Shown here piece by piece: positions 8,793-35,702 of a stretch of DNA of 38,939 nt. How positions within the stretch are numbered: position 1 is the first letter of the stretch; every line of letters begins with the position of its first letter. The translations under genes were made by a program, and so were the position numbers. The stretch comes from Solirubrobacteraceae bacterium (GTDB lineage Bacteria > Actinomycetota > Thermoleophilia > Solirubrobacterales > Solirubrobacteraceae), in contig JADGPL010000027.1 of NCBI GenBank assembly GCA_017882455.1, positions 1 to 38,939 of the forward strand, given 5' to 3'. The notes beneath the pieces were generated by a model. It was not told the DNA's origin. It saw only the letters and a list, made by a program, of their open reading frames with translations, and did no database searches.

Positions 8793-11096
8793 TCAGCGGG
8801 CCACCGTGTAGGTCCTCGTGACCATCGTGCGCCGCCCCGTGGGGCCCGCGGCGACGATCGTCACGCTCGCGCGCATCGCCGTGTGGCCTCCCAGCTCGCG
8901 GCGCAGCCGGCGCAGAGCGGCCGGTCCCACGCGCAGGCGCACATGGCCGCTGCGGGTCGGCGGCAGGCCCCGCGCGGAGGCGATCAGCGGGGCTCCTCGC
9001 CCGCGTCCGATCGGCGCGAGCGTGCCCGAGACGAGTACCTTGCACCCTCGTTGGCAGCCGATGGACAGGGCCAGGGCGCGTCGGGCGAGCACGCCGCCGC
9101 TATGCGGGAGGCTCACCCTCAGCACGGGTGCCACGTCGAGCGGAGGCGGCCACGATCCGGCCGCGATGCAGCCGCTGCCGTTGGGCGAGATCATGTTGAA
9201 GCGCTCCACGCGGTTGTTGTCGGTGTCGGCCACATACACCTCGCCCGCGCAATCGACAGCGATGGCGCTCGGCTGTGAGAAGTCGCCGATGCCCGGACCG
9301 CGCACGCCCCATCTGTAGAGGAAGTGGCCTTCCTGGTCGAAGACCTCGACGCGGTTGTTTTCGCTGTCGAGGACGTACACGTTCCCGCCCCCATCGACGG
9401 CCACTCCCGTGGGCGAGAGAAAGCGCCCGTCGGCGGTGCCCCGCGAGCCCCATTCGGTCAACACCGCGCCGTTGGGTGACAGCTTGACCACGCGGTTGTT
9501 GCCGGTGTCCGCCACGTAGGCGTTGCCGGCGCCATCGACCGCGACCGCGGCCGGATGGCTGAATTCGCCCGAGCCGCTCCCGGCCGCGCCGTCTCCGCCG
9601 CCTGCGCCCAGCTTGGCGCGCAGGGTCCCTTCGGGCCCGTAGACGAGCAGGCGGTTATGGGCTGTGTCGGCCACGTAGGTCTCGTCCGGGCCGTCGGCCA
9701 CGGCCGTCGATCCTGCTCCGCTGAGCTGGGCTCCTCCGAGGTCGCCGGGGCCGCCCAGTTCGCCCAGGAACGTGCCGTCGCCCCACAGGTGGGCAAGTCG
9801 TGCGTTGGCGGTGTCGGCGACGTACACCGAGCCGCGGGGGTCGACCGCGATGCCGGCAGGCGCGTTGAATCCCGCAGCGTGTCCTCCCGCGGCGGTCCAC
9901 TGTCCGAGGTAGGCGTCGCTACCTGGCGCGAAGAGCTCGATGCGATTGCCGACAGTGTCGGAGATCAGCAGCCTGCCGGTGGGGTCGATCGCCAGCCCGC
10001 GCGGAGCCGTGAGCTCGCCGGGGCCGCGGGCGGAGCTCCCGATCGTGCGCAGGTAGTTGCCGGCAGGGTCATACACCTCGACTCGATCGTTGGCCGTGTC
10101 GGCGACGTAGGCGTCGCCGGCGGGGTCGCTCGCGACCGCCCGGGGAAAGGCGAGCTGTCCCGGTTTGGAGCCAAAGCCGCCCCAGGCGCCGGCGAAGGCC
10201 AGCTGCGGGGTCAGCTTGACCACGCGGTGGTTGATGTCGTCGGCCACGTACACCTCGCCGGCCGCGTCCAGCGCGACGCCGTAGGGGTAGCCGAACTGGC
10301 CGGGGCCGGTGCCGTTCGTCCCGACCGCGGCCTCAAAGGCGCCTTCCGGGGCGAACTTCTCGATGCGGTGGTTGTCGTCGTCGCTGACGATCACCTCGCC
10401 TTCGTTGGCGGCCACCCCGCGGGGGTAGGAGAACTGGCCGAGCCCGCTGCCCTTTTCGCCCCATGCCATCGCTTCTGTGCCTTCGAGGTTGAAGCGCTCG
10501 ATTCGGTTGTTGCCGCTGTCGGCCACATAGACGTAGTTGCCCGCCACCGCGATTCCGCCCCCCGGGGGCTGGGTGTAGTTCTGGGAGGAGCCGAAGGAGA
10601 ACTCGCCGAGTTCCGAGCCGTGATGGCCCCACGATGTCAGGAAGTTCCCGTTTGGGTCGAACTTCTCGATGCGGTTGTGACTCGAGTCGACCACGTACAC
10701 GTCCCCGGCCGCATCCGTGGCGAGCCCGGCGATCGGGCCGAACTGCCCGTGCCCGCCGCCGAAGGAGCCCCACTCGTTCTCGAACACGCCGCTCGCGCTG
10801 AACTTCTGGACCACGTAGCTGAGCTGATCGGCCACGTATACGTCGCCCTGCGTGTCCACGGCGACGGCCTCGGGGAAGCGCAGGACCCCCTCGGCGCGGT
10901 TGCCGATCACCTGGGCGGCCGCATACGGGCAGCTGTTCGCGCCGGGGCAGGGGGCGGCGGACGCCGCGGATGTGACGGTGGGGGTCAGGAGGGCGGCGGC
11001 AGCGAGGGCGACGGCGGCGAGGGCGCCGGTCGCGGCGCGCAGCGCCACGCGCAGCCCGCAGGTCAGCCGCAACCAAGGAGATGCGAGGAGGCCCAT
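8793..11096 (-). CDS. Secreted NHL-repeat protein (12 repeats)
   Basis: This 767-residue exported protein starts at ATG 11096 (a GTG at 11153 would add 19 residues). A long signal peptide with an Ala/Leu core (ALAAVALAAAALLTPTVTSA) is followed by twelve NHL repeats of about 45 residues, each of the type GxFxxPxGVAVDxxGxVYVADxxNNRVxxF. Twelve repeats would make two stacked six-bladed propellers, or one large ring. The last 110 residues form a separate beta-rich domain (VLRVSLPHSGGVLARRALAL, IGCQRGCKVLVSGTLAPIGR, VTIVAAGPTGRRTMVTRTYT) with one Cys pair, a common ending of secreted Solirubrobacterales proteins. NHL propellers bind proteins or sugars; no enzymatic motif is seen. Role unknown, probably surface-exposed or released. 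Confidence 0.85.
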   Translation of the reverse strand: MGLLASPWLRLTCGLRVALRAATGALAAVALAAAALLTPTVTSAASAAPCPGANSCPYAAAQVIGNRAEGVLRFPEAVAVDTQGDVYVADQLSYVVQKFSASGVFENEWGSFGGGHGQFGPIAGLATDAAGDVYVVDSSHNRIEKFDPNGNFLTSWGHHGSELGEFSFGSSQNYTQPPGGGIAVAGNYVYVADSGNNRIERFNLEGTEAMAWGEKGSGLGQFSYPRGVAANEGEVIVSDDDNHRIEKFAPEGAFEAAVGTNGTGPGQFGYPYGVALDAAGEVYVADDINHRVVKLTPQLAFAGAWGGFGSKPGQLAFPRAVASDPAGDAYVADTANDRVEVYDPAGNYLRTIGSSARGPGELTAPRGLAIDPTGRLLISDTVGNRIELFAPGSDAYLGQWTAAGGHAAGFNAPAGIAVDPRGSVYVADTANARLAHLWGDGTFLGELGGPGDLGGAQLSGAGSTAVADGPDETYVADTAHNRLLVYGPEGTLRAKLGAGGGDGAAGSGSGEFSHPAAVAVDGAGNAYVADTGNNRVVKLSPNGAVLTEWGSRGTADGRFLSPTGVAVDGGGNVYVLDSENNRVEVFDQEGHFLYRWGVRGPGIGDFSQPSAIAVDCAGEVYVADTDNNRVERFNMISPNGSGCIAAGSWPPPLDVAPVLRVSLPHSGGVLARRALALSIGCQRGCKVLVSGTLAPIGRGRGAPLIASARGLPPTRSGHVRLRVGPAALRRLRRELGGHTAMRASVTIVAAGPTGRRTMVTRTYTVAR

Positions 11097-26265: not shown

Positions 26266-28146
26266 CTACACCCCCGAGCCGGCCTGAGGCTCGGGTTCCG
26301 CGGGTTCCGCGGCCGGAGCCGGCGCGGAGGGCATGCGCCCGGAAGGCGTATCGGCAGGCTCGCCCCGGGCGCTCTCTGGCTCCACGACGGTCCACACGGG
26401 GACAGGGGCGACGCGCCCGCGAACCTCGAGCTCGCCGACGAGCGTGAGGGTGTCGGGCGGGTCGTGCAGCCGCTCACGGGTGCTGTCGGCGATGAAGAGC
26501 ATGTGTCCGCTGCCCTTGGTCATGCCCTCCAGGCGCGAGGCGGTGTTTGTGGTGTCGCCCAGGGCGGTGTACTCGACGCGCTGCTCTGAGCCGATGTTGC
26601 CGGCCATGACCGGGCCGCTGTTGATTCCCACGCCCATCACGAAGGCGTGGTCGTGGCCCTGCTCGGCCAGCCACGAGTTGAAGCGCTCGAGCCTTGGCCC
26701 GATCATCTCGGTGGCGGCGGCCAGCGCCCGGTCGGCGTGGTCGGACTGCGCGAGCGGAGCGCCGAAGACGGCCATGATGCCGTCGCCCATGTATGAGATC
26801 AGGGTGCCGCCCGCGCCGAGGATCGCCTCGGTCATCTCGTTGAGGTAGCAGTTGACGACCTCGATCACCCGTGGCGCCGGCTGTGTCTCGGAGAAGCTGG
26901 TGAACCCGCGCAGGTCGGAGAACAGCACCGAGCAGTCGCGTTCCACGGCCCCCAGCCTGAGGTTGTCACCGGCGCTGGCGACCACCTGGTCGACGACGTC
27001 CGCGGGGACGAAGCGCGCGAACAGGTCGTGCACACGCGCCCGTTCGATCGTCTCGCCCACATAGAGGACGGCGAGCGTGCCCAGGGTCCCGAGGGCCAGG
27101 GCCAGGAGCGGATAGACGAACGCCAGGATCCTGCCGCTGTCGAAGGCGATCTGGGTGGCGACCGTGAAGACGATTGCGAGCCCGGCGGCGTCGAGCAGCG
27201 AGCGCCACCGGCGCACGCGCATGCTGCCGAGTGGGACCGCGCACCCCAGCAGAGCGATCAAGCCGATGTCGAGCCATCCCGGAACGCCTCGGAGCGGTAC
27301 ACCCTGCAGCAGCGTCGCCGCCGCGTTGGCCCAGATTTCCGGGCCGGGCATGGTGCCACCGCTCGTGGGGGTGGCGTGGAGGTCTTGGAGGATCGGCGAA
27401 GACGCCCCGACGATGGCGAGCTTGCCGCGAAAGAGGCTCGCTGGGAATTCACCTTTCAAGACCCTCGCGTAGGAGATCGACCTGAAGGTTTCGGAGGGTC
27501 CCGCATAGTCGATGGGGAGGGTGCCGTGTTCGAATGTCGAGGCGGCGATCTTGTGCCCAGTCATCGCTTCGGCTGCCACCACCGGCAAGCTGCCCAAGTG
27601 GTTGTACTCACGGGCAACGCGCCGAACAGAGCCGTCCGTGTCGAGCGTGAGTCGCACCTCCGACGGCCTTACGCCGATTTCCCGGAGAAGCGCCGGCGCG
27701 CCACCAAAGATGGCTGTGCCGCCGTCTCTGGTGACGTTGACAGTGCCAAGGATCACTTTGCCATGGGCACGGCCGATCGCTTCGATCAGCGCGTCGTCCT
27801 GTTCAGGCGTCGTTTCGTGGGTGAATTCCATGTCCATCGCGATCGCTCGTGCGCCGGCCCCCCTGAGTCGGTCGACAACTTCCGCGTCGTACCTGCGTGG
27901 CAGAGGAGACCGAGACTTGAGGTGGTGCGCTTCGAGTTCCTGTTCGGCGGCCAGGCTGATCGCCACGAAGACGATGTTCGACGGCGGCTTGTGGCTGCCC
28001 CGGATCGAGAACCGTGCGTCGATCGTCTGCAGTTCGGTGCGCCTCAGCAGATGAGTTGCGTACGCGAGCACGCCGATGCCGCCTGCAACCGCGGCGACCG
28101 CCAGCAGCGCCACGACCTTGCGCCGCTGTCTGTGCGCCCCGCCCAT
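26266..28146 (-). CDS. CHASE2-domain class III nucleotide cyclase
   Basis: This is a 626-residue membrane protein. One N-terminal helix (VVALLAVAAVAGGIGVLAYA) is followed by an extracellular CHASE2 sensor (about 40-285), three membrane helices (WLDIGLIALLGCAVPLG; DAAGLAIVFTVATQIAF; FVYPLLALALGTLGTLAVLY) and a cytoplasmic cyclase domain (about 395-575). The metal Asp residues are in VLFSDLRGFTSF and YMGDGIMAVFG, and the transition-state Asn and Arg in GDTTNTASRLEG. The substrate-selecting position normally Asp is Thr (YTALGD), as in class IIIb adenylyl cyclases. The usual Lys three residues before GD is Ser (ISYMGD), which is atypical. The Pro/Glu-rich tail is low-complexity. It likely makes cAMP in response to an external signal. 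ATG 28146 lies at the edge of a 12-base inverted repeat. Confidence 0.92.
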   Translation of the reverse strand: MGGAHRQRRKVVALLAVAAVAGGIGVLAYATHLLRRTELQTIDARFSIRGSHKPPSNIVFVAISLAAEQELEAHHLKSRSPLPRRYDAEVVDRLRGAGARAIAMDMEFTHETTPEQDDALIEAIGRAHGKVILGTVNVTRDGGTAIFGGAPALLREIGVRPSEVRLTLDTDGSVRRVAREYNHLGSLPVVAAEAMTGHKIAASTFEHGTLPIDYAGPSETFRSISYARVLKGEFPASLFRGKLAIVGASSPILQDLHATPTSGGTMPGPEIWANAAATLLQGVPLRGVPGWLDIGLIALLGCAVPLGSMRVRRWRSLLDAAGLAIVFTVATQIAFDSGRILAFVYPLLALALGTLGTLAVLYVGETIERARVHDLFARFVPADVVDQVVASAGDNLRLGAVERDCSVLFSDLRGFTSFSETQPAPRVIEVVNCYLNEMTEAILGAGGTLISYMGDGIMAVFGAPLAQSDHADRALAAATEMIGPRLERFNSWLAEQGHDHAFVMGVGINSGPVMAGNIGSEQRVEYTALGDTTNTASRLEGMTKGSGHMLFIADSTRERLHDPPDTLTLVGELEVRGRVAPVPVWTVVEPESARGEPADTPSGRMPSAPAPAAEPAEPEPQAGSGV

Positions 28147-28208: not shown

Positions 28209-28349
28209 GCGAGGCGGGCCGGCTACGCGCCAGCGGCGTATGCCGGCGTCGCGCGCGCCACCATGCCGGCTCGCCGTATGTAAAGTCCGACATTCGGGCG
28301 GGGTGGTCGGTCTCGGCGTGAGCGTCCTCGTCGCCCTGGGGTGCCCAGA

Positions 28350-31301
28350 ATGAGCTCAGCGGCAAGCATCTCGACGGCGGGAGTCGGTGGTCGCACCGGC
28401 GGGAGAGTCGGCGGCCTGTTGCCGGTCGTCGTGCTCGTGCTCGTGCTCGCCGGGGTGTGGTTGTCGTTTCCCGTCCAGGCGAGCGCCTCGGTGGAAAGCG
28501 GCGCGCTCTCGCAGCTTCCGTCGCCGGCGAACTGCGTCGGCGACACCGAAGAAGGAGTGATGGCGCTGTGCGGCACCGGCGTCGGCAGCGGGCTCCAGCT
28601 CACCTACCAGACAGCCGTCAGCCCCGACGGCGCCAACGTCTACTCCGTCGCCCACGGAGGGGCGCTGATCGAGTACTCGCGGAACCCCGCCAGCGGCGCT
28701 CTCGCGGTGATCGGCTGCATAACCGGCCTCACCTCGTCACCGACCGACTCCTGCGCGCCGACGAACGCCCAGTACGGCGTCACCGTCGTCGAAAGCCTCG
28801 GCGCGATCGCGATCAGCCCGAACGGCAAGAACGTCTACGTCCTCGATCAGGGCAAGAACATGGTCGTCGAGCTCAGCCGCGATACGGAAACGGGCCTGCT
28901 CGCGGTCATGAAAGGGGCGGGAGGCGAACCGGAATGCATCACCGAGGAAGCGTCGCTGTGTGAACACACAAACGCCATCGGACTGAGCAACCCGTACGGC
29001 ATCGCAGTGAGCCTCGACGAAGAAACCGTCTATGTCGCGAGCCTCGGCAGCGAATCGGTCGCCGAGCTCGCGCGCGACACCTCCACGGGCACGCTCGAAG
29101 CGATCGCCGGGCACGAATGCATCGGGGGCCCGGGAAGCGGTTGCCCGGAAAACACGGCGATCGGTGTCGCGAACGCGATCGGCGTCGTCGTGAGCCCCGA
29201 CGGCAAAGACGTCTACGTGGCCGCCGGCGCGAAAGGCGAAGAAGGAGACGTGGCGTCCTTCAAACGCGGTGCCGGCGGGGTGCTGGAACAGCTGGCCGGC
29301 GAAGAAGGCTGTGTCAGCGAAAAGATCGTCGTGTGCGCCAAAGTCAAAGCGCTGCAGGGTTCCGAGGACCTGGCGATCAGTCCGGATGGAAAGGACGTGT
29401 ATGCGACCTCCTATCCGACGAACGCGATCGTCGAGCTCAAACGCGAAGCCACCGGCGTCCTCACCCAACTCGGCGGCAGCAATGGCTGCGTCACCACGAA
29501 TTCGATCGCCGGCTGCACCGAAGCCACGGACATCAGCGGTCCGCTGGGAGTCGCCGTCAGCCCGGATGGGGCCAACCTCTACGCGAGCGGCTCCTCCAGC
29601 AACGCCGAGGCGGCGTTCGCCCGCAACGCCTCCACGGGCGCACTCACGCAGCTCGGCGAAGCAGACCCCTGCGTGACATCCGAAGCCTCCGGCTGCGGCG
29701 CTGAATTCAACAACGCGATCGGGCTCGACGGCGCTCGTCGCGTCGCGGTCTCACCCGACGGCACCAACGTCTATGTGGCCGGCCAGAGCTCCAACGCGCT
29801 CGTCGAGCTCGCGCGCACGGTGAAACCGACCGCCACCGACGTGCAGCCCAAAGAAGGCTCCGAAGCGGGCGGTGAACAGGTGACGATCAAAGGCGCGGGC
29901 TTCGCCGAAGGCGCCCAGGTCCTGTTCGGGACCACGCCCGCCGTGAGCGTGACCGTGAACTCGGCCACATCGATCACCGCCGTCAGCCCGGCCGAAAGCG
30001 TGGGTCCGCAGAACGTCGAGGTCGTCAATGCCGCCGGCGAATCCGAAGTGGAACCCGTCAAAGCCAAATTCGCATTCACCCTCGCCACGACGCCGACCGT
30101 CTCCGGGCTGTCGGCGTCGTACGGACCCCAGGCGGGTGGAACGATCGTCCAGATCACCGGCAGCGAATTCCTCGCGGGCTCCAGCACGGTGAGGTTCGCC
30201 AGCACGCCCGCGACGAACGTCACGGTCAACTCGGGCGCCTCGATCACCGCGACCGCTCCAGCCGGGAGCGGCATCGTGGACGTGACGGTCACCACGTCGA
30301 AGGGGACGTCGGCCACAAGCGGCGGCGACCGCTTCAAATACAACTTCACGCCCCCGCACAAGCTCGGCGGACTCGACACCACGGGCTATTGCGTGAGCCT
30401 CGGCGATCACGGGACCGAAGGAGCTCCCGCGAAACTGCTCAAGGGAGCCGTCGAAGGCCCTGAATTTGCGTTCAACAACTGGGCCTGCGAAACGAACACG
30501 GGCACGCTCGTGCCGATCGCCTCCGCCGGGCCGGCGCCCAGCGAGAACGACATGTGCCATCACGAATACCCCAACGTGTCCTCGTTCGCGTTCGCCGAAG
30601 AAGCCAACAGCGCGTTCAGCTGGGCCTGCTACGAAACCGAACCCACGCCCGAACAGCACGCGAGCACCACGACGACCACAGCAACCACGGCGACCACGGC
30701 GACCACGAAATCCACTCCCGCGGTCCTGGCGCCGCCAACGCTGTCGAGGACCGGCAACGTGGCCCCGATCTCGGGCAGGGTCATGGTGCGTCTGCCCGGC
30801 ACCAGGACCTTCCTCCCCCTTTCCTCCCTGCGCCAGATCCCCTTCGGGACGGTCATCGACGCCACCAACGGCAGGGTGGTCGTGACCACCGCCCTGCCCC
30901 ACGGCGGAACCCAGACCGGCGAATTCTTCAGCGGCGAGTTCGTGCTCACCCAGGGCCGGGATGGCACGGTCGTGGCGACATTGACCGGGGGCGACTTCGC
31001 GGTCTGCCCGACCGCGCGCGAGCGTGCGCACCGGGCGCGCGTGAGCTCCTACCGGGCTTTCTCCAGCTCGACCTCGGGCAAGCATGTCGTGCGCAAGCTG
31101 TGGGCCAACGCGCATGGCAAGTTCTCGACCAAGGGCAACTACGCGGCCGGCGCGGTGCAGGGCACCGAATGGCTGACCGAGGATCTCTGTGAAGGCACGT
31201 CGATCCGGGTCACGCGGGACAAGGTCCTCGTCACCGATCTCGTCCGCCACCGCCACAAAACGGTGAAGGTCGGCCACAGCTACCTCGCCAAGGCGCCCTA
31301 G
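28350..31301 (+). CDS. Large secreted beta-propeller/IPT protein with C-terminal surface module
   Basis: This 983-residue protein starts at ATG 28350 (GTG 28341 is an alternative) and has a signal peptide with the core LLPVVVLVLVLAGVWLSF. Residues about 60-490 are YVTN-like repeats (AVSPDGANVYSV, AISPNGKNVYVL, VVSPDGKDVYVA, AISPDGKDVYAT, AVSPDGTNVYVA), six or seven blades. Two IPT/TIG domains follow (about 491-578 and 580-666: GTTPAVSVTVNSATSITAVS, FASTPATNVTVNSGASITAT). A Cys-bearing segment comes next, then a Thr-rich linker (about 770-790) and a C-terminal module from about 807 (ISGRVMVRLPGTRTF to KVGHSYLAKAP), shared with the next gene. Codons are unusually rich in GAA and AAA for this window. 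It is probably a surface or matrix protein; ligand unknown. Confidence 0.88.
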   Translation: MSSAASISTAGVGGRTGGRVGGLLPVVVLVLVLAGVWLSFPVQASASVESGALSQLPSPANCVGDTEEGVMALCGTGVGSGLQLTYQTAVSPDGANVYSVAHGGALIEYSRNPASGALAVIGCITGLTSSPTDSCAPTNAQYGVTVVESLGAIAISPNGKNVYVLDQGKNMVVELSRDTETGLLAVMKGAGGEPECITEEASLCEHTNAIGLSNPYGIAVSLDEETVYVASLGSESVAELARDTSTGTLEAIAGHECIGGPGSGCPENTAIGVANAIGVVVSPDGKDVYVAAGAKGEEGDVASFKRGAGGVLEQLAGEEGCVSEKIVVCAKVKALQGSEDLAISPDGKDVYATSYPTNAIVELKREATGVLTQLGGSNGCVTTNSIAGCTEATDISGPLGVAVSPDGANLYASGSSSNAEAAFARNASTGALTQLGEADPCVTSEASGCGAEFNNAIGLDGARRVAVSPDGTNVYVAGQSSNALVELARTVKPTATDVQPKEGSEAGGEQVTIKGAGFAEGAQVLFGTTPAVSVTVNSATSITAVSPAESVGPQNVEVVNAAGESEVEPVKAKFAFTLATTPTVSGLSASYGPQAGGTIVQITGSEFLAGSSTVRFASTPATNVTVNSGASITATAPAGSGIVDVTVTTSKGTSATSGGDRFKYNFTPPHKLGGLDTTGYCVSLGDHGTEGAPAKLLKGAVEGPEFAFNNWACETNTGTLVPIASAGPAPSENDMCHHEYPNVSSFAFAEEANSAFSWACYETEPTPEQHASTTTTTATTATTATTKSTPAVLAPPTLSRTGNVAPISGRVMVRLPGTRTFLPLSSLRQIPFGTVIDATNGRVVVTTALPHGGTQTGEFFSGEFVLTQGRDGTVVATLTGGDFAVCPTARERAHRARVSSYRAFSSSTSGKHVVRKLWANAHGKFSTKGNYAAGAVQGTEWLTEDLCEGTSIRVTRDKVLVTDLVRHRHKTVKVGHSYLAKAP
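31080..31301 (+). repeat. 3' module duplicated at 32083-32304
   Basis: The last 220 or so bases of the gene 28350-31301 are nearly the same as the last 220 of the gene 31354-32304. They share long identical runs, such as the stretch encoding KFSTKGNYAAGAVQGTEWLT, and differ mainly at third positions. Similarity at protein level extends upstream to about 30769 and 31798. A recent duplication or gene conversion is indicated. Confidence 0.85.
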
Positions 31302-31353
31302 GCTCCACGCCTCCCACTTGCGCTACTTGGCCGCCAGGAGGATCCCCGCAGCG

Positions 31354-32304
31354 ATGGCACTCCTCGGCGCGGTGCTCGTGCTCGTGGTCGTGCTGCTCGT
31401 GAGTGCCGCGGGTGGCGCGTCAGCATCGGCGCTGAACCTGTCCGGGACGTGGTCGGCCAGCTACCACTGCGAAGCCGGTGGGTGCGCCGGGAGCGACTTC
31501 CCGGCCACCGACACCCTCAGCCAGGCTGAAGGCTCGAGCGCGGTCACGGGCAGCAACGGTGGCGAAGCCATCACGGGCACGCTGACCGGCAACGCGTTCG
31601 CCTACCGCAGCTCGGTCGGCGGCTACAGCGCCGAAGGCACGCTCACGATCGCCCCCGACGGGCTCTCGTGGTCGGGCCATGTCCACGACAGCAACGGGAC
31701 CAGCGGCACCTACACTGCGACGCGCGCCTCCGCGCCAGCACCCGCGCCGGCCTCCTCACCAAAGCTGGGCGTCTCGGCAGGCCTGATTGCCGCGTCGGGC
31801 GTCGTGCTCGTCCGGGCCAAGGGGTCGAGCGCATTCGCGCCGCTGTCCTCGCAGAGCGTCCTTGCGCTCGGAGCCACCGTCGACGCGACCCACGGGCGCG
31901 TCGTGGTGACGACGGCGGCGCCCCATGGCGGCACGCAGACGGGTGAGTTCTTCGAAGGCGAGTTCGTGCTGACGCAGGCACGCAACGGCATCGTCAGCGC
32001 GACGCTCGCCGGGGGCAGCTACGCGCCCTGCCCGACCGCCCGCGAGCGTGCGCATCGGGCGCGTGTGAGCTCGGCTGGGGGCAAGCAGGTCGTGCGCAAG
32101 CTGTGGGCCAATGCGCACGGGAAGTTCTCGACCAAGGGCAACTATGCGGCCGGCGCGGTGCAGGGCACCGAATGGCTGACCGAGGATCTGTGCGAAGGCA
32201 CGTTGATCCGGGTGACGCGTGACAAGGTCAAGGTCACCGATCTCGTGCGGCACCGCAGCCGGACGGTGAAGGTCGGCCACAGCTATCTCGCCAAGGCGCC
32301 CTGA
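31354..32304 (+). CDS. Secreted protein sharing the C-terminal module of its neighbour
   Basis: This 316-residue protein starts at ATG 31354, with AGGAGG 12 bases upstream. A TTG at 31318 would give a signal peptide with a better basic start (MRYLAARRIPAAM) and is a fair alternative. After the signal core (LVLVVVLLVSAAGG) an N-terminal beta-rich domain of about 100 residues (LNLSGTWSASYHCEAGG, TGTLTGNAFAYRSSVGG, TIAPDGLSWSGHVHDSNGTS) is joined by an Ala/Pro linker to the module found in the preceding protein (about 149-316). The module opens like a FecR domain (ATVDATHGRVVVTTAAPHGG) and ends AGAVQGTEWLTEDLCEGTLI to SYLAKAP. The gap to the previous gene is only about 50 bases, so an operon is likely. 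Confidence 0.88.
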   Translation: MALLGAVLVLVVVLLVSAAGGASASALNLSGTWSASYHCEAGGCAGSDFPATDTLSQAEGSSAVTGSNGGEAITGTLTGNAFAYRSSVGGYSAEGTLTIAPDGLSWSGHVHDSNGTSGTYTATRASAPAPAPASSPKLGVSAGLIAASGVVLVRAKGSSAFAPLSSQSVLALGATVDATHGRVVVTTAAPHGGTQTGEFFEGEFVLTQARNGIVSATLAGGSYAPCPTARERAHRARVSSAGGKQVVRKLWANAHGKFSTKGNYAAGAVQGTEWLTEDLCEGTLIRVTRDKVKVTDLVRHRSRTVKVGHSYLAKAP

Positions 32305-32345: not shown

Positions 32346-35300
32346 TCAGACGCGTATAACGGTGCGACGGCCCGCCAGATCCCCGCCCACCGACTGTGTT
32401 CGCGACAGCCAGGCCGGTGGCTCGCCCTCGAGAGCCGCGATAGCGGCGCGACGGCCCGCCGCGCGCGCCTCGTCGATCTGGTGGAACTCCAGCAGGCCGA
32501 CTCCGGAGACCCGCACGCGGATCGTCATGTCGGCGAGGCGGCGAGCGGACTCGTCGGTGTTGGCGCTGCTCAGCAGCGCGATGCGGGCCATCGTCTCGGG
32601 CAGCGAGGGCAGGCGCCGGCGGCGCGGGCGCTTGGCCGCGCCACGCTCGACGGACGTGCCCTCATCCGGTGTGCTCGCGGCTCGCGTGCGTTCTTCGCCA
32701 CCCTTGATGTCCACGGCTAGGACCGGCCCCTCGCCGCTCGAGCTCATCGGCGCCAGCGGCAGATTGTCGAGCAGCGAGCCGTCGATCAGGATGCCCTCGC
32801 CGCGACGCATCGGCGGCGCGATCAGCGGCAACGAGATGCTTGCGCCCACCGCGAGCGCCATCGGCCCGCTGCGGTCGATCACCAGACGGTTGCCGCGCAG
32901 GTTCACGCTCGCGCAGTAGTACGGCCGGCCCAGCTCCTCGACCTGGAGCTCGCCGAATACCCGCTCGAGCATCGCCTCGGCCTTGTGGCCCTTGATCAGC
33001 GCCGATCGCGGAACCGTGTAGTCGTTGATCGGGTTGCGACGCACCCACTCCTCGTAGCAGCAGGCGTCCATCGCGGCGCTGTCGTGACCGCAGGCGAGCA
33101 GGCCGCCGATGAACGAGCCCATGCTCACACCGCCCACGCGGTCGACCACCATGCCCGCGTCCAGGAGCACCTCGAGCACGCCCAGATGCGCGAACGCCCG
33201 AGCTCCACCGCCGCTGAGCACCACGCCCACGGCTCGCCCGCAGAGCCTGCGCGCAGTGCGCGCCAGATCGCGCCGGCGCGTGGGCGAGGCGACGGCGAAC
33301 ACGCTCGCCGGCGCGAGCAGCTCGAGCCAAGGGGCGAGGGTTGCGGAGCCGGCCCTGACCTCGAGCGCCAGCAGATCCGACCCGCGCAGGGCGCCCAGCG
33401 CATCCGAGGCCGGGTCCGGAGCGACGCCTGCCTCGACCGCCACCAGGACGCGGTCGGCGCGCGATCGGCAGAACTCGTTCCACTGGCTCGCGGCCCCCTC
33501 GGGCCCCGCCACCATGATCACCTGGTCGTGTTCCTGCTCGCAGGCCTCCACCAGCGGGGCGAATCTCGCGATCGCCTCTGCCGTCGTGGCGGGTCCCTCC
33601 CCGGAGGCTCCATCCGCCCCTGGATAGAGCACCGCCACCTTGCCCCACGCGCACATCTCGCGACTCAGCTCGTGGGCCAGCTCGAGCAGCTCGACGCCCT
33701 CGGTGGCCGCGCACAGCGCGATCGTCACCGGCCGTGCGCGTCGTGCGACCGGCAGGGCACGGCTCGCCTGCAGCTGGGAGCTGAGCACGCGCGTGAGGCT
33801 GAGAGCCAGCTCGGGCTCGGATCGCAGCAGCGCCTGGAAGCTCGCCGCCTCGATCCGCAGCAGCTCCGTGTCTCGCAACGCGCGCACCGAGGCGCTGCGC
33901 CGGGATTCGCTCAGCAGCGCAAGCTCGCCCAACACAGCACCGCGCGTCAGCGTGTTGATCGCTTCCGGCTTGCTGCGCTCCTGGACCACCTCCAGGTGCC
34001 CCACGCGCACCACGTACACCCCGTCGGCCTCCTCGCCTTCGCGAAACAGCCACTGTCCGCGCTCCAGCCGCACGCTGTCGGCGATGCCCGCTATCTCCTC
34101 GAGCATCTGCTCCGAGAGCCCGGCGAAGACCGGAACGTTGCGCAGGAACTCCGCAACCGATTGGGGCTCGCCCTGTGCACGCTCGCCCTGCGTGTCCGTG
34201 AGGCTCGGAAGCTCCGCCTCCATCAGCCCTTCGGCGGACTCGGGCGCCTCCGGCGCCTGGAGCGCCACGCCGACCCCCGCCGGCGCCTCTTCCGCGCGCT
34301 TGACCACCAGCCCGAGACACGCCACCGATCCCGTCAGGAAGCATGCGCCCGCGAACCACCAGCCGTGCTCGAAGGCGTGCAGCGCCTGCAGCCGGCCGGG
34401 GTTGCCCACGATCGCGATCAGGATCGCCACTCCGATCGCCGCTCCGAGCTGGCGCGCAACCGAGTTCAGCGAGGTGGCCACCGCGAAGCGCGGTCCCGGG
34501 ACCGATCCCACCGCAGCGCCGCTCAGCGTCGGGAAGCTCAGCCCGGCCCCGATCCCCAGGATCACCATCCCGGGCAGCCAGCCGGTGAGGAAGTCCGCCT
34601 TCACCCCCAGCGTCTCCGCGAAGTAGGCCATGCCACCGGCCCAGATCAGCGCGCCCGGGACCACCACGGCGCGATGTCCGACGCGTTCGACCAACCGGCT
34701 CGCCGGGCCTGCCACGGCCATGGCGGTGAACGGCCCCGGCGTCAGAGCCAGCCCGGCCGTGAGGATCGAGTAGTGCCACACCCCGGTCAGGAACAGGACG
34801 TTGCAGAGCGTGTACGCGTAGAAGCCGCCGGCCATCACCACGGTTACGCCGTTCGAGAGCGCGAACGCACGGATGCGCATCAGCGAAAGATCGATCACAG
34901 GTGCGCGATGGCGAGCGGCGCGCAGCGTGAAGTACACGCCGAGCAGGATCGCCACTGCGAACGCACCAATAATTCGACCGTTCGACCAACCCCATTCCTG
35001 ACCCTTGACCACGGCGAGCACCAACGAGGCGATGGCCAGCGCCAACACGGCGCCCCCGAGGAGATCCGGCATGCGCCGGCGACCTGGCGCGCGACTCTCC
35101 ACGAGCACCCGCTGGGCCAACACGAACGCCGCCAGGCCCACCGGCACGTTCACGAGGAACACCAGCCGCCAGTTGGACGCGGTGATCAGCAGGCCGCCGA
35201 GCGGGGGGCCGATGCCGGCGGCGAGCGCCGCGACCGCCGACCACAGCGCCACTGCGTGCATGCGCTCGCTCGCCTCGTGGGCCTCGAGCACGATCGCCAG

Positions 35301-35702
35301 CGAGCTCGGCACGAGCATCGCCGCGCCCGCCGCCTGGATCACCCGCGCGCCCACGAGGAAGCTCAGCGACGGGGAGATCGCGCACAGCGCCGAGGCGAGT
35401 GTGAAGGCGATCAACGCGGCCGAGAACACGCGGCGGCGGCCGAGCAGATCGGCCAGTTGCCCACCCCCCACGAGAAACGCCGCAAACACGACGTTGTAGG
35501 CGTTCAGCACCCACGACACGCTCGACAGGCGTGAGCCCGCGAAGTCGTGGGCGATGTTGGGAACGGCGATGTTCACGATCGTGGCGTCCACGAATGCCAT
35601 GAACGTGCCGAGCACCGCCACCGCCAGCACGACTCTGGGCGAGGAGATGCGTCGCGTCCGCGCTCCCACCGCTGGTGCCGCCAGTGTCCCCGTGCCGCCC
35701 AA
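32346..35702 (-). CDS. MFS transporter - cyclic-nucleotide-binding - patatin lipase fusion
   Basis: This is a 1118-residue protein in one uninterrupted frame. Residues about 25-475 are a 14-helix DHA2 (EmrB/QacA) drug:H+ antiporter: FMAFVDATIVNIAVPNIAHD, GGGQLADLLGRRRVFSAAL (motif A) and LAAGIGPPLGGLLI (motif C). A 40-residue linker leads to a CRP-type domain at about 515-640 (VPVFAGLSEQMLEEIAG, REGEEADGVYVVRVG, GELALLSESRRSASVRAL). An NTE-like intermediate region follows, then a patatin phospholipase at about 822-990. That has the oxyanion loop VLSGGGARAFAHLG, Ser in GGVSMGSFIGG (near 857) and Asp in DGSLLDNLPLAP (near 972). All catalytic and transport motifs are present. TTG 35702 or GTG 35669 could be the start; an internal ATG at 34223 could yield a soluble CNBD-lipase. 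It presumably couples cyclic nucleotide to lipid hydrolysis at the membrane. Confidence 0.9.
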   Translation of the reverse strand: MGGTGTLAAPAVGARTRRISSPRVVLAVAVLGTFMAFVDATIVNIAVPNIAHDFAGSRLSSVSWVLNAYNVVFAAFLVGGGQLADLLGRRRVFSAALIAFTLASALCAISPSLSFLVGARVIQAAGAAMLVPSSLAIVLEAHEASERMHAVALWSAVAALAAGIGPPLGGLLITASNWRLVFLVNVPVGLAAFVLAQRVLVESRAPGRRRMPDLLGGAVLALAIASLVLAVVKGQEWGWSNGRIIGAFAVAILLGVYFTLRAARHRAPVIDLSLMRIRAFALSNGVTVVMAGGFYAYTLCNVLFLTGVWHYSILTAGLALTPGPFTAMAVAGPASRLVERVGHRAVVVPGALIWAGGMAYFAETLGVKADFLTGWLPGMVILGIGAGLSFPTLSGAAVGSVPGPRFAVATSLNSVARQLGAAIGVAILIAIVGNPGRLQALHAFEHGWWFAGACFLTGSVACLGLVVKRAEEAPAGVGVALQAPEAPESAEGLMEAELPSLTDTQGERAQGEPQSVAEFLRNVPVFAGLSEQMLEEIAGIADSVRLERGQWLFREGEEADGVYVVRVGHLEVVQERSKPEAINTLTRGAVLGELALLSESRRSASVRALRDTELLRIEAASFQALLRSEPELALSLTRVLSSQLQASRALPVARRARPVTIALCAATEGVELLELAHELSREMCAWGKVAVLYPGADGASGEGPATTAEAIARFAPLVEACEQEHDQVIMVAGPEGAASQWNEFCRSRADRVLVAVEAGVAPDPASDALGALRGSDLLALEVRAGSATLAPWLELLAPASVFAVASPTRRRDLARTARRLCGRAVGVVLSGGGARAFAHLGVLEVLLDAGMVVDRVGGVSMGSFIGGLLACGHDSAAMDACCYEEWVRRNPINDYTVPRSALIKGHKAEAMLERVFGELQVEELGRPYYCASVNLRGNRLVIDRSGPMALAVGASISLPLIAPPMRRGEGILIDGSLLDNLPLAPMSSSGEGPVLAVDIKGGEERTRAASTPDEGTSVERGAAKRPRRRRLPSLPETMARIALLSSANTDESARRLADMTIRVRVSGVGLLEFHQIDEARAAGRRAAIAALEGEPPAWLSRTQSVGGDLAGRRTVIRV

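What the first reader, a model, noticed from the sequence alone, without database searches (positions are those of the whole stretch)
30769..32304. Two secreted neighbours share a nearly identical C-terminal module
The proteins differ at their N-termini (propeller plus IPT domains against a small beta domain) but share about 170 C-terminal residues, with the last 220 bases almost identical. The module begins like a FecR domain and ends in a Lys-rich HSYLAKAP tail. It may be an anchoring or assembly tag with interchangeable heads.
Basis: partly seen in the sequence, partly recalled or inferred. Interest (0 to 1): 0.5.

Follow-up and report, generated by a model that had tools for sequence, protein, structure and literature searches.

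The report
Swappable sensor heads on FecR-like plug
Two neighbouring secreted proteins of a soil actinobacterium end in the same FecR-like domain, which in its bacterial class is found almost only together with CHASE2 receptors and behind many different front ends, so it probably plugs exchangeable sensors into a shared membrane receptor.

Summary
ORFs 28341-31301 and 31318-32304 share a 176-residue C-terminal module, 76% identical. The last 235 bases are 89% identical, and silent sites suggest recent gene conversion. The module occurs in 87 of 399 class genomes, within 10 residues of the stop in 126 of 145 ORFs, behind diverse heads (propellers, Ig/PKD/TIG, fn3). Pfam and NCBIfam do not recognise the window copies; profile comparison makes it a remote FecR domain.

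The new finding is its partner. Beside it lies a CHASE2 adenylate cyclase. CHASE2 occurs in 77 of 80 module-bearing genomes tested but 1 of 80 module-free ones; 94 of 104 CHASE2 domains lie within 5 kb of a module. Outputs behind CHASE2 vary (cyclase, HD-GYP, kinase). A cNMP-binding gene is adjacent in 33 of 75 cyclase loci and 0 of 26 others. Partner trees match beyond within-genome swaps. In S. meliloti the ORF before CHASE2 cyclase CyaK, apparently its receptor NsrA, also has a FecR domain.

A plug coupling swappable sensors to CHASE2 explains this better than an anchoring tag. Binding is untested. FecR-CHASE2 clustering is published elsewhere; this is a new variant.

The parts
26266..28146 (-). 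CHASE2 receptor with a C-terminal adenylate/guanylate cyclase domain (626 aa), divergent from the module genes; proposed socket for the module
   Evidence: Pfam CHASE2 E 4e-36 and Guanylate_cyc E 1e-20; linkage and co-occurrence
28341..31301 (+). First module gene (986 aa): apparent export signal, lactonase-type beta-propeller, two IPT/TIG domains, module
   Evidence: export signal read by eye
30741..31298 (+). FecR-like C-terminal module, copy 1
   Evidence: hhalign to FecR proteins
31318..32304 (+). Second module gene (328 aa; start codon uncertain): apparent export signal, small head without Pfam match, module
   Evidence: export signal read by eye
31756..32301 (+). FecR-like C-terminal module, copy 2
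31065..31299 (+). Homogenised (probably gene-converted) tract, copy 1
   Evidence: 89% identity to 32068-32302; silent-site jump
32068..32302 (+). Homogenised (probably gene-converted) tract, copy 2
32346..35702 (-). MFS transporter + cyclic-nucleotide-binding + patatin protein; possible cAMP effector of the circuit
   Evidence: Pfam; cNMP-binding ORFs adjoin 33 of 75 cyclase-type loci, 0 of 26 others

Best explanation
The module is a divergent FecR domain that works as the coupling part of a two-protein extracytoplasmic receptor. The exported protein senses with its N-terminal head (here a propeller plus TIG domains, or a small domain) and touches the extracellular CHASE2 domain of a membrane protein with its C-terminal FecR-like module. 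That contact sets the activity of the cytoplasmic output: in the window an adenylate cyclase, elsewhere an HD-GYP phosphodiesterase or a kinase. Cyclase-type loci often carry a cyclic-nucleotide-binding effector next door. Heads and outputs are exchangeable; module and CHASE2 are the constant interface. Shown: shared module, its C-terminal place, head diversity, remote FecR homology, co-occurrence and linkage with CHASE2, varying outputs, co-inheritance of partners. Inferred: direct module-CHASE2 contact, direction of the signal, sensing by the heads.
For: Co-occurrence: CHASE2 in 77 of 80 module-positive genomes (7 of 87, the weak or fragmentary ones, left out because at most 80 handles are taken) and in 1 of 80 module-negative ones. 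In the 11 genera holding both states, 65 of 67 genomes agree. Linkage: 91 of 104 CHASE2 domains within 5 kb of a module place, 94 after reading the regions. Constant pair, variable rest: 101 CHASE2 ORFs carry cyclase 75 (74 by Pfam), HD-GYP 21, protein kinase 4, hybrid histidine kinase 1, and a module is in the fetched stretch of 67 of 75 cyclase and 24 of 26 other loci; 143 heads hit 60 and 59 Pfam families in two batches. Output-matched third gene: 33 of 75 against 0 of 26, Fisher 5.6e-6. Mirror-tree r 0.59 over 92 pairs; 0 of 2000 within-genome partner swaps reach the observed value. FecR homology: hhalign P 8e-7, control against CHASE2 P 0.84. The 1227-codon ORF before the CHASE2 cyclase in S. 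meliloti 1021 has a FecR match near its N-terminus; its counterparts in two relatives and strain R11 score PF04773 at E 2.5e-15 to 2.9e-17, with TPRs. NsrA and its cognate cyclase CyaK are both needed for signal 1 perception (PMC7529298, passages).
Against: No binding data and no usable structure (AlphaFold pLDDT 45). Linked genes can share a tree through joint transfer. 34 of 126 module loci lack CHASE2 in the fetched stretch, among them arrays of 4-6 module genes in one genus. G122, completeness 100 in three contigs, has modules but no CHASE2. Four CHASE2 genes stand at least 5 kb from any module found, though their genomes hold a module elsewhere. Without the one Thermoleophilia FecR protein the hhalign probability falls to 55%. 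Outside the class 3 of 9 actinobacterial CHASE2 loci had a nearby FecR ORF by my own profile, and Pfam confirms only two of these (L230, L232; not L234). Two of the six plasmid loci first opened from the cyclase search pair CHASE2 with a CHAT protein, not FecR. No module-CHASE2 fusion among 104 CHASE2 ORFs.
Confidence: 0.7

Rival explanations
1. Anchoring or assembly tag: the module fixes diverse secreted heads to the cell wall or to each other; CHASE2 genes sit nearby only because both serve the envelope.
For: C-terminal (126 of 145 within 10 aa of the stop), diverse heads, module arrays without CHASE2.
Against: Presence and absence track CHASE2 inside genera (65 of 67 genomes); partner-specific co-inheritance; cNMP gene only at cyclase loci; no hydrophobic segment in or after the module in 137 ORFs.
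Confidence: 0.14
2. The FecR-like protein is a target or accessory of the same pathway, not the ligand: the CHASE2 protein senses a small molecule and the module proteins are its secreted output or act elsewhere.
For: In S. meliloti a FecR-domain protein (SMc02177) is among the targets of the cAMP regulator Clr (PMC5498481, passages).
Against: 24 of 26 HD-GYP and kinase versions keep the module beside them, so the module follows CHASE2, not cAMP; NsrA is needed for signal perception through the cyclase.
Confidence: 0.12
3. Travelling gene cassette: module and CHASE2 co-occur because they are transferred as one island and have no direct functional contact.
For: Patchy distribution within genera; co-inheritance of linked genes is expected from transfer.
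Against: The pair is found in all relative orientations (46 same strand with the module upstream, 7 downstream, 29 divergent, 9 convergent) and, in four genomes, unlinked; FecR-CHASE2 pairs recur in other phyla (PMC9239204, passages).
Confidence: 0.04

Closest known systems
FecR-CHASE2 gene pairs: LysM-FecR protein with CHASE2 histidine kinase in Burkholderia, shorter version in P. aeruginosa (PMC5192318, passages); FecR outer-membrane protein with CHASE2 adenylate cyclase in Campylobacterota (PMC9239204, passages)
   Same: An exported protein with a FecR domain encoded beside a CHASE2 receptor; different outputs
   Different: Here the FecR domain is too diverged for Pfam's cut-off, sits at the C-terminus, has a largely conserved Cys pair (132 of 146) and carries many head types; the link is shown by co-occurrence across a class, not only by neighbourhood
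NsrA-CyaK of Sinorhizobium meliloti
   Same: Separate surface sensor and CHASE2 cyclase; the ORF before the cyclase has a FecR domain
   Different: NsrA is described as an outer-membrane beta-barrel protein; the ORF has its FecR domain near the N-terminus, then TPRs. That this ORF is NsrA rests on size and on a gene order that I recall
FecA-FecR-FecI ferric citrate signalling of E. coli
   Same: FecR domain outside the cytoplasm; the module profile ranks E. coli FecR among its six top hits in six loci
   Different: No hydrophobic segment in or after the module; no sigma factor or TonB receptor among the window neighbours scanned. The Fec mechanism itself is recalled
C-terminal sorting or anchor domains (recalled as a class)
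   Same: Short C-terminal module behind many heads
   Different: No C-terminal membrane segment, FecR-like profile, linked to a receptor

Membership tests
FecR domain (PF04773) | Scores over the curated Pfam cut-off | tested here: not met
   6 of 30 members match weakly, best E 0.0058; in 74 module-bearing genomes only 1 has any hit at E 1e-3, and it is another gene, L202
FecR domain (PF04773) | Profile-level homology along the whole domain | tested here: met
   hhalign P 7.6e-7, probability 85%, 144 aligned columns over both halves; without L202 P 1.8e-5, probability 55%; control against CHASE2 P 0.84; FecR ORFs are the six best hits of the module profiles in six loci
FecR domain (PF04773) | Same three-dimensional fold | tested here: inconclusive
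   AlphaFold mean pLDDT 45 with a five-sequence alignment; no PDB sequence relative, best E 0.67
FecIR anti-sigma system | ECF sigma factor partner and membrane-spanning anti-sigma part | tested here: not met
   No hydrophobic segment in or after the module in 137 ORFs; no sigma factor among the four window proteins scanned; other loci were not searched for sigma factors
FecR-CHASE2 receptor pair | FecR-type gene close to a CHASE2 gene | tested here: met
   Window; 94 of 104 CHASE2 domains within 5 kb of a module
FecR-CHASE2 receptor pair | Physical binding of the FecR domain to CHASE2 | not testable with these tools
   No complex prediction or binding data available
C-terminal membrane anchor | Membrane segment at the C-terminus | tested here: not met
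   0 of 137 ORFs with a hydrophobic segment in or after the module
Wall-sorting tag | Sorting motif at the C-terminus | not tested
   No systematic motif search was made; none seen by eye in the alignment

The most novel reading that the evidence does not exclude
CHASE2 is, in general, not a small-molecule sensor but a socket for FecR-domain proteins. In Thermoleophilia this has become a plug-and-socket bus: many exported heads, each ending in the same FecR-like plug, report to a few CHASE2 sockets, whose cytoplasmic side can be a cyclase, an HD-GYP phosphodiesterase or a kinase. The orphan module arrays are further plugs for sockets encoded elsewhere in the genome, and gene conversion keeps plugs compatible with a shared socket.
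Probability: 0.4. Interest if true: 0.75.

Novelty: new variant of a known kind. Interest (0 to 1): 0.62.

Why it matters
[quoted passage not shown] A near one-to-one dependence of CHASE2 on a FecR-like protein in the sampled genomes of a bacterial class says where to look: at a protein partner. It would also give a function to a large set of exported propeller and Ig-like proteins whose shared end the family libraries do not name, and a modular receptor in which sensor and output can be exchanged.

Tried and rejected
Structure of the module: only window proteins and loci from the search for related loci were allowed, so the alignment had five sequences and the model is unusable (pLDDT 45); I ran no fold search on it. 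PDB sequence search with the module profile: nothing (best E 0.67). Fusions of module and CHASE2: none among 104 CHASE2 ORFs. A profile of 146 members found no further modules in the regions fetched up. Receptors beside orphan modules: Pfam scans of 20 chosen neighbouring ORFs from nine loci gave housekeeping genes, a transposase-like gene, a glycosyltransferase, RTX and DUF5122 proteins, one histidine kinase (L167), or nothing. FecR next to CHASE2 is not general outside the class: 3 of 9 actinobacterial loci by my profile, two confirmed by Pfam; four of those nine contigs end close by, and three weaker CHASE2 matches were not examined. The module was not searched for in other phyla beyond the collection scan, whose three hits are named Solirubrobacteraceae, Actinobacteria and Chlamydiae; the last two are metagenome bins and the Chlamydiae-labelled contig has the length of one held as same-genus G387.

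Dropped rows and limits: seven module-positive genomes (G053, G163, G167, G314, G324, G359, G385) were left out of the CHASE2 search because at most 80 handles are taken; I chose them as weak or fragmentary. Regions of three of them were read later: G314 and G359 show CHASE2 beside the module, G167 does not. The output census used 101 of 104 CHASE2 ORFs (L066, L200, L201 are cut by contig ends). The head census used 143 of 150 module ORFs, and its tables show only the first 25 families of each batch. The 80 negatives are the 20 printed ones plus 60 handles of my choice that were not among the positives. At most about 8 candidates per genome were scored, so module counts are lower bounds and a weak module in a negative genome could be missed. 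Four regions with orphan modules of G380 were not fetched, as apparent near-copies of G232. In the cyclase search of plasmids (244 records) seven were opened: S. meliloti R11 and 1021, Niveispirillum, Ensifer, S. fredii, Ruegeria, Sphingobium; in the FecR search (9 records) four were opened.
Full report
What is there. The window (a contig of a 3.3 Mb genome) has two + strand ORFs with 16 bases between them, 28341-31301 and 31318-32304. They end in the same module, 76% identical over 176 residues. The first carries a lactonase-type propeller and two TIG domains; the second has a short head without Pfam match. Both begin with an apparent export signal (read by eye). The search found no third copy in this genome. 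On the left, divergent, lies a CHASE2 adenylate cyclase; on the right, convergent, an MFS-cNMP-binding-patatin protein. The genome is probably one of Solirubrobacteraceae (class Thermoleophilia): a same-genus genome has a contig of the same length (48,803 bases) as a named Solirubrobacteraceae record.

Near-identity of the last 235 bases. In codons for the same amino acid the third base agrees in 51% of cases in the first half of the module and 83% in the second; 12 comparisons of the window copies with relatives give 42-69% in either half. Among the 40 other within-locus pairs the largest rise is 0.22, against 0.32 here, so the jump is the largest but not unique in kind. Recent gene conversion of the second half is the simplest reading.

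Spread and heads. A 30-sequence profile finds the module in 87 of 399 class genomes, and in 5 of 346 genomes across the phylum, all five from the class and one of them this genome. Of 145 ORFs with a complete end, the module stops within 10 residues of the stop codon in 126 and within 60 in 138. The 143 heads scanned match 60 and 59 Pfam families in two batches (related families overlap); commonest are NHL (26 heads) and virginiamycin-B-lyase propellers (25), with Reg_prop, fn3, PKD, bacterial Ig, TIG, beta-helix, RCC1 and FG-GAP among the rest. Of 137 ORFs, 98 have a hydrophobic segment upstream of the module, 39 none at that threshold, and 0 have one in or after it. Two cysteines are both present in 132 of 146 members.

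What the module is. Pfam and NCBIfam give nothing for the window copies, and PF04773 reaches 6 of 30 members, weakly. Yet a 146-member profile ranks the six FecR ORFs first among all ORFs of six loci, E. coli FecR included, with E from 1e-6 to 3e-3 in that small set. A profile-profile comparison with these FecR domains gives P 7.6e-7, probability 85%, over both halves; without the one Thermoleophilia FecR it falls to P 1.8e-5, probability 55%; a control against CHASE2 gives P 0.84. I call it a divergent FecR-like domain; the fold is not confirmed.

Its partner. CHASE2 (PF05226) is found in 77 of 80 module-positive genomes and in 1 of 80 module-negative genomes; that one, G179, has CHASE2 pieces at contig ends. 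The three positives without CHASE2 are G346 and G125 (about 300 and 490 contigs) and G122 (three contigs, completeness 100; a true exception). Eleven genera contain both states among the 160 tested genomes, and 65 of their 67 genomes agree, so the pair has apparently come and gone together repeatedly. Of 104 CHASE2 domain places (four genes have two), 91 lie within 5 kb of a module place; reading the regions added three, 94 in all. Of the other ten, six lie within about 2.6 kb of a contig end and four (G023, G218, G241, G392) are unlinked, each in a genome with an unlinked module elsewhere. My own rough estimate of chance, from module number and genome size, is about one in two hundred per domain. 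In the other direction 94 of 147 module places lie within 5 kb of CHASE2, and 92 of 126 module loci read contain it.

What varies and what does not. The parts behind CHASE2 are cyclases in 74 of 101 ORFs by Pfam (75 by my own profile), HD-GYP domains in 21 (all with the HHExxxGxGYP pattern), protein kinases in 4 and one hybrid histidine kinase. The module is there in 67 of 75 cyclase loci and 24 of 26 others. A cNMP-binding ORF lies within 1.5 kb in 33 of 75 cyclase-type loci and 0 of 26 others, Fisher p 5.6e-6: the third gene follows the output, the module follows CHASE2. Over 92 linked pairs the two trees correlate (r 0.59); in the 17 genomes with several pairs, exchanging partners within the genome lowered the correlation from 0.56 to 0.26 on average, and 0 of 2000 exchanges reached the observed value. 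This controls for species history but not for joint transfer of linked genes.

Links to known systems. FecR and CHASE2 genes are neighbours in Burkholderia and P. aeruginosa (PMC5192318, passages) and in Campylobacterota (PMC9239204, passages); mtxA of Magnetospirillum is followed by a CHASE2 cyclase gene (PMC4439547, passages; no FecR mentioned). I saw a CHASE2 ORF directly after the FecR ORF in four of four plasmid loci found by a FecR query (two Paraburkholderia, Caballeronia, Novosphingobium). Of six plasmid loci found by the cyclase query, four have FecR beside CHASE2 (S. meliloti R11, Ensifer, S. fredii, Ruegeria) and two have a CHAT-TPR gene instead (Niveispirillum, Sphingobium). Outside the class, 3 of 9 actinobacterial loci have a FecR ORF by my profile; Pfam confirms L230 and L232, not L234. 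In S. meliloti 1021 the ORF before the CHASE2 cyclase has 1227 codons and a FecR match near its N-terminus; the Thermoleophilia module profile has one hit below E 0.1 in that locus, in this ORF (E 2.8e-4). By size this is NsrA, whose barrel is placed at residues 600-1200 and which, with its cognate cyclase CyaK, is needed to perceive a plant signal (PMC7529298, passages; also PMC13001267 and PMC10463352, passages). That nsrA adjoins cyaK I recall; the original paper was not held.

Mechanism. Most likely the head senses, the FecR-like module docks on CHASE2, and CHASE2 sets the output. Module, heads, partner and outputs are shown; docking, sensing and signal direction are inferred. Searches for Thermoleophilia with FecR and CHASE2 with Solirubrobacter gave no paper; CHASE2 with FecR gave three and 'FecR domain' with adenylate cyclase two of these, on Burkholderia, Campylobacterota and S. 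meliloti; 'FecR-like domain' gave one paper, on an anammox bacterium (listing and start of abstract only). I found no description of the Thermoleophilia version in this library.

Noticed in passing
L171 (G154), L172 (G232), L181 (G308): Arrays of 5, 4 and 6 module genes in a row without CHASE2 in one genus with 7-8 Mb genomes, in one case beside housekeeping genes; what they report to is unknown.
   Followed up: partly
L081, L084, L085, L086: CHASE2 cyclase ORFs of about 1080 aa with two CHASE2 domains each, beside a module gene.
   Followed up: no
L240, L244: CHASE2 genes next to CHAT-TPR genes on Niveispirillum and Sphingobium plasmids, perhaps a second kind of CHASE2 partner.
   Followed up: no
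L168 (G122): Module gene in a complete genome without CHASE2, beside RTX and DUF5122-propeller ORFs.
   Followed up: partly
window 9193-10323: Seven copies of a 53-nt repeat, mostly 141 nt apart, which would suit an NHL-type propeller gene; not tested.
   Followed up: no
L239 2244-5833: In S. meliloti R11 the FecR-TPR ORF before cyaK is open in two pieces; an intact copy exists in strain 1021.
   Followed up: no
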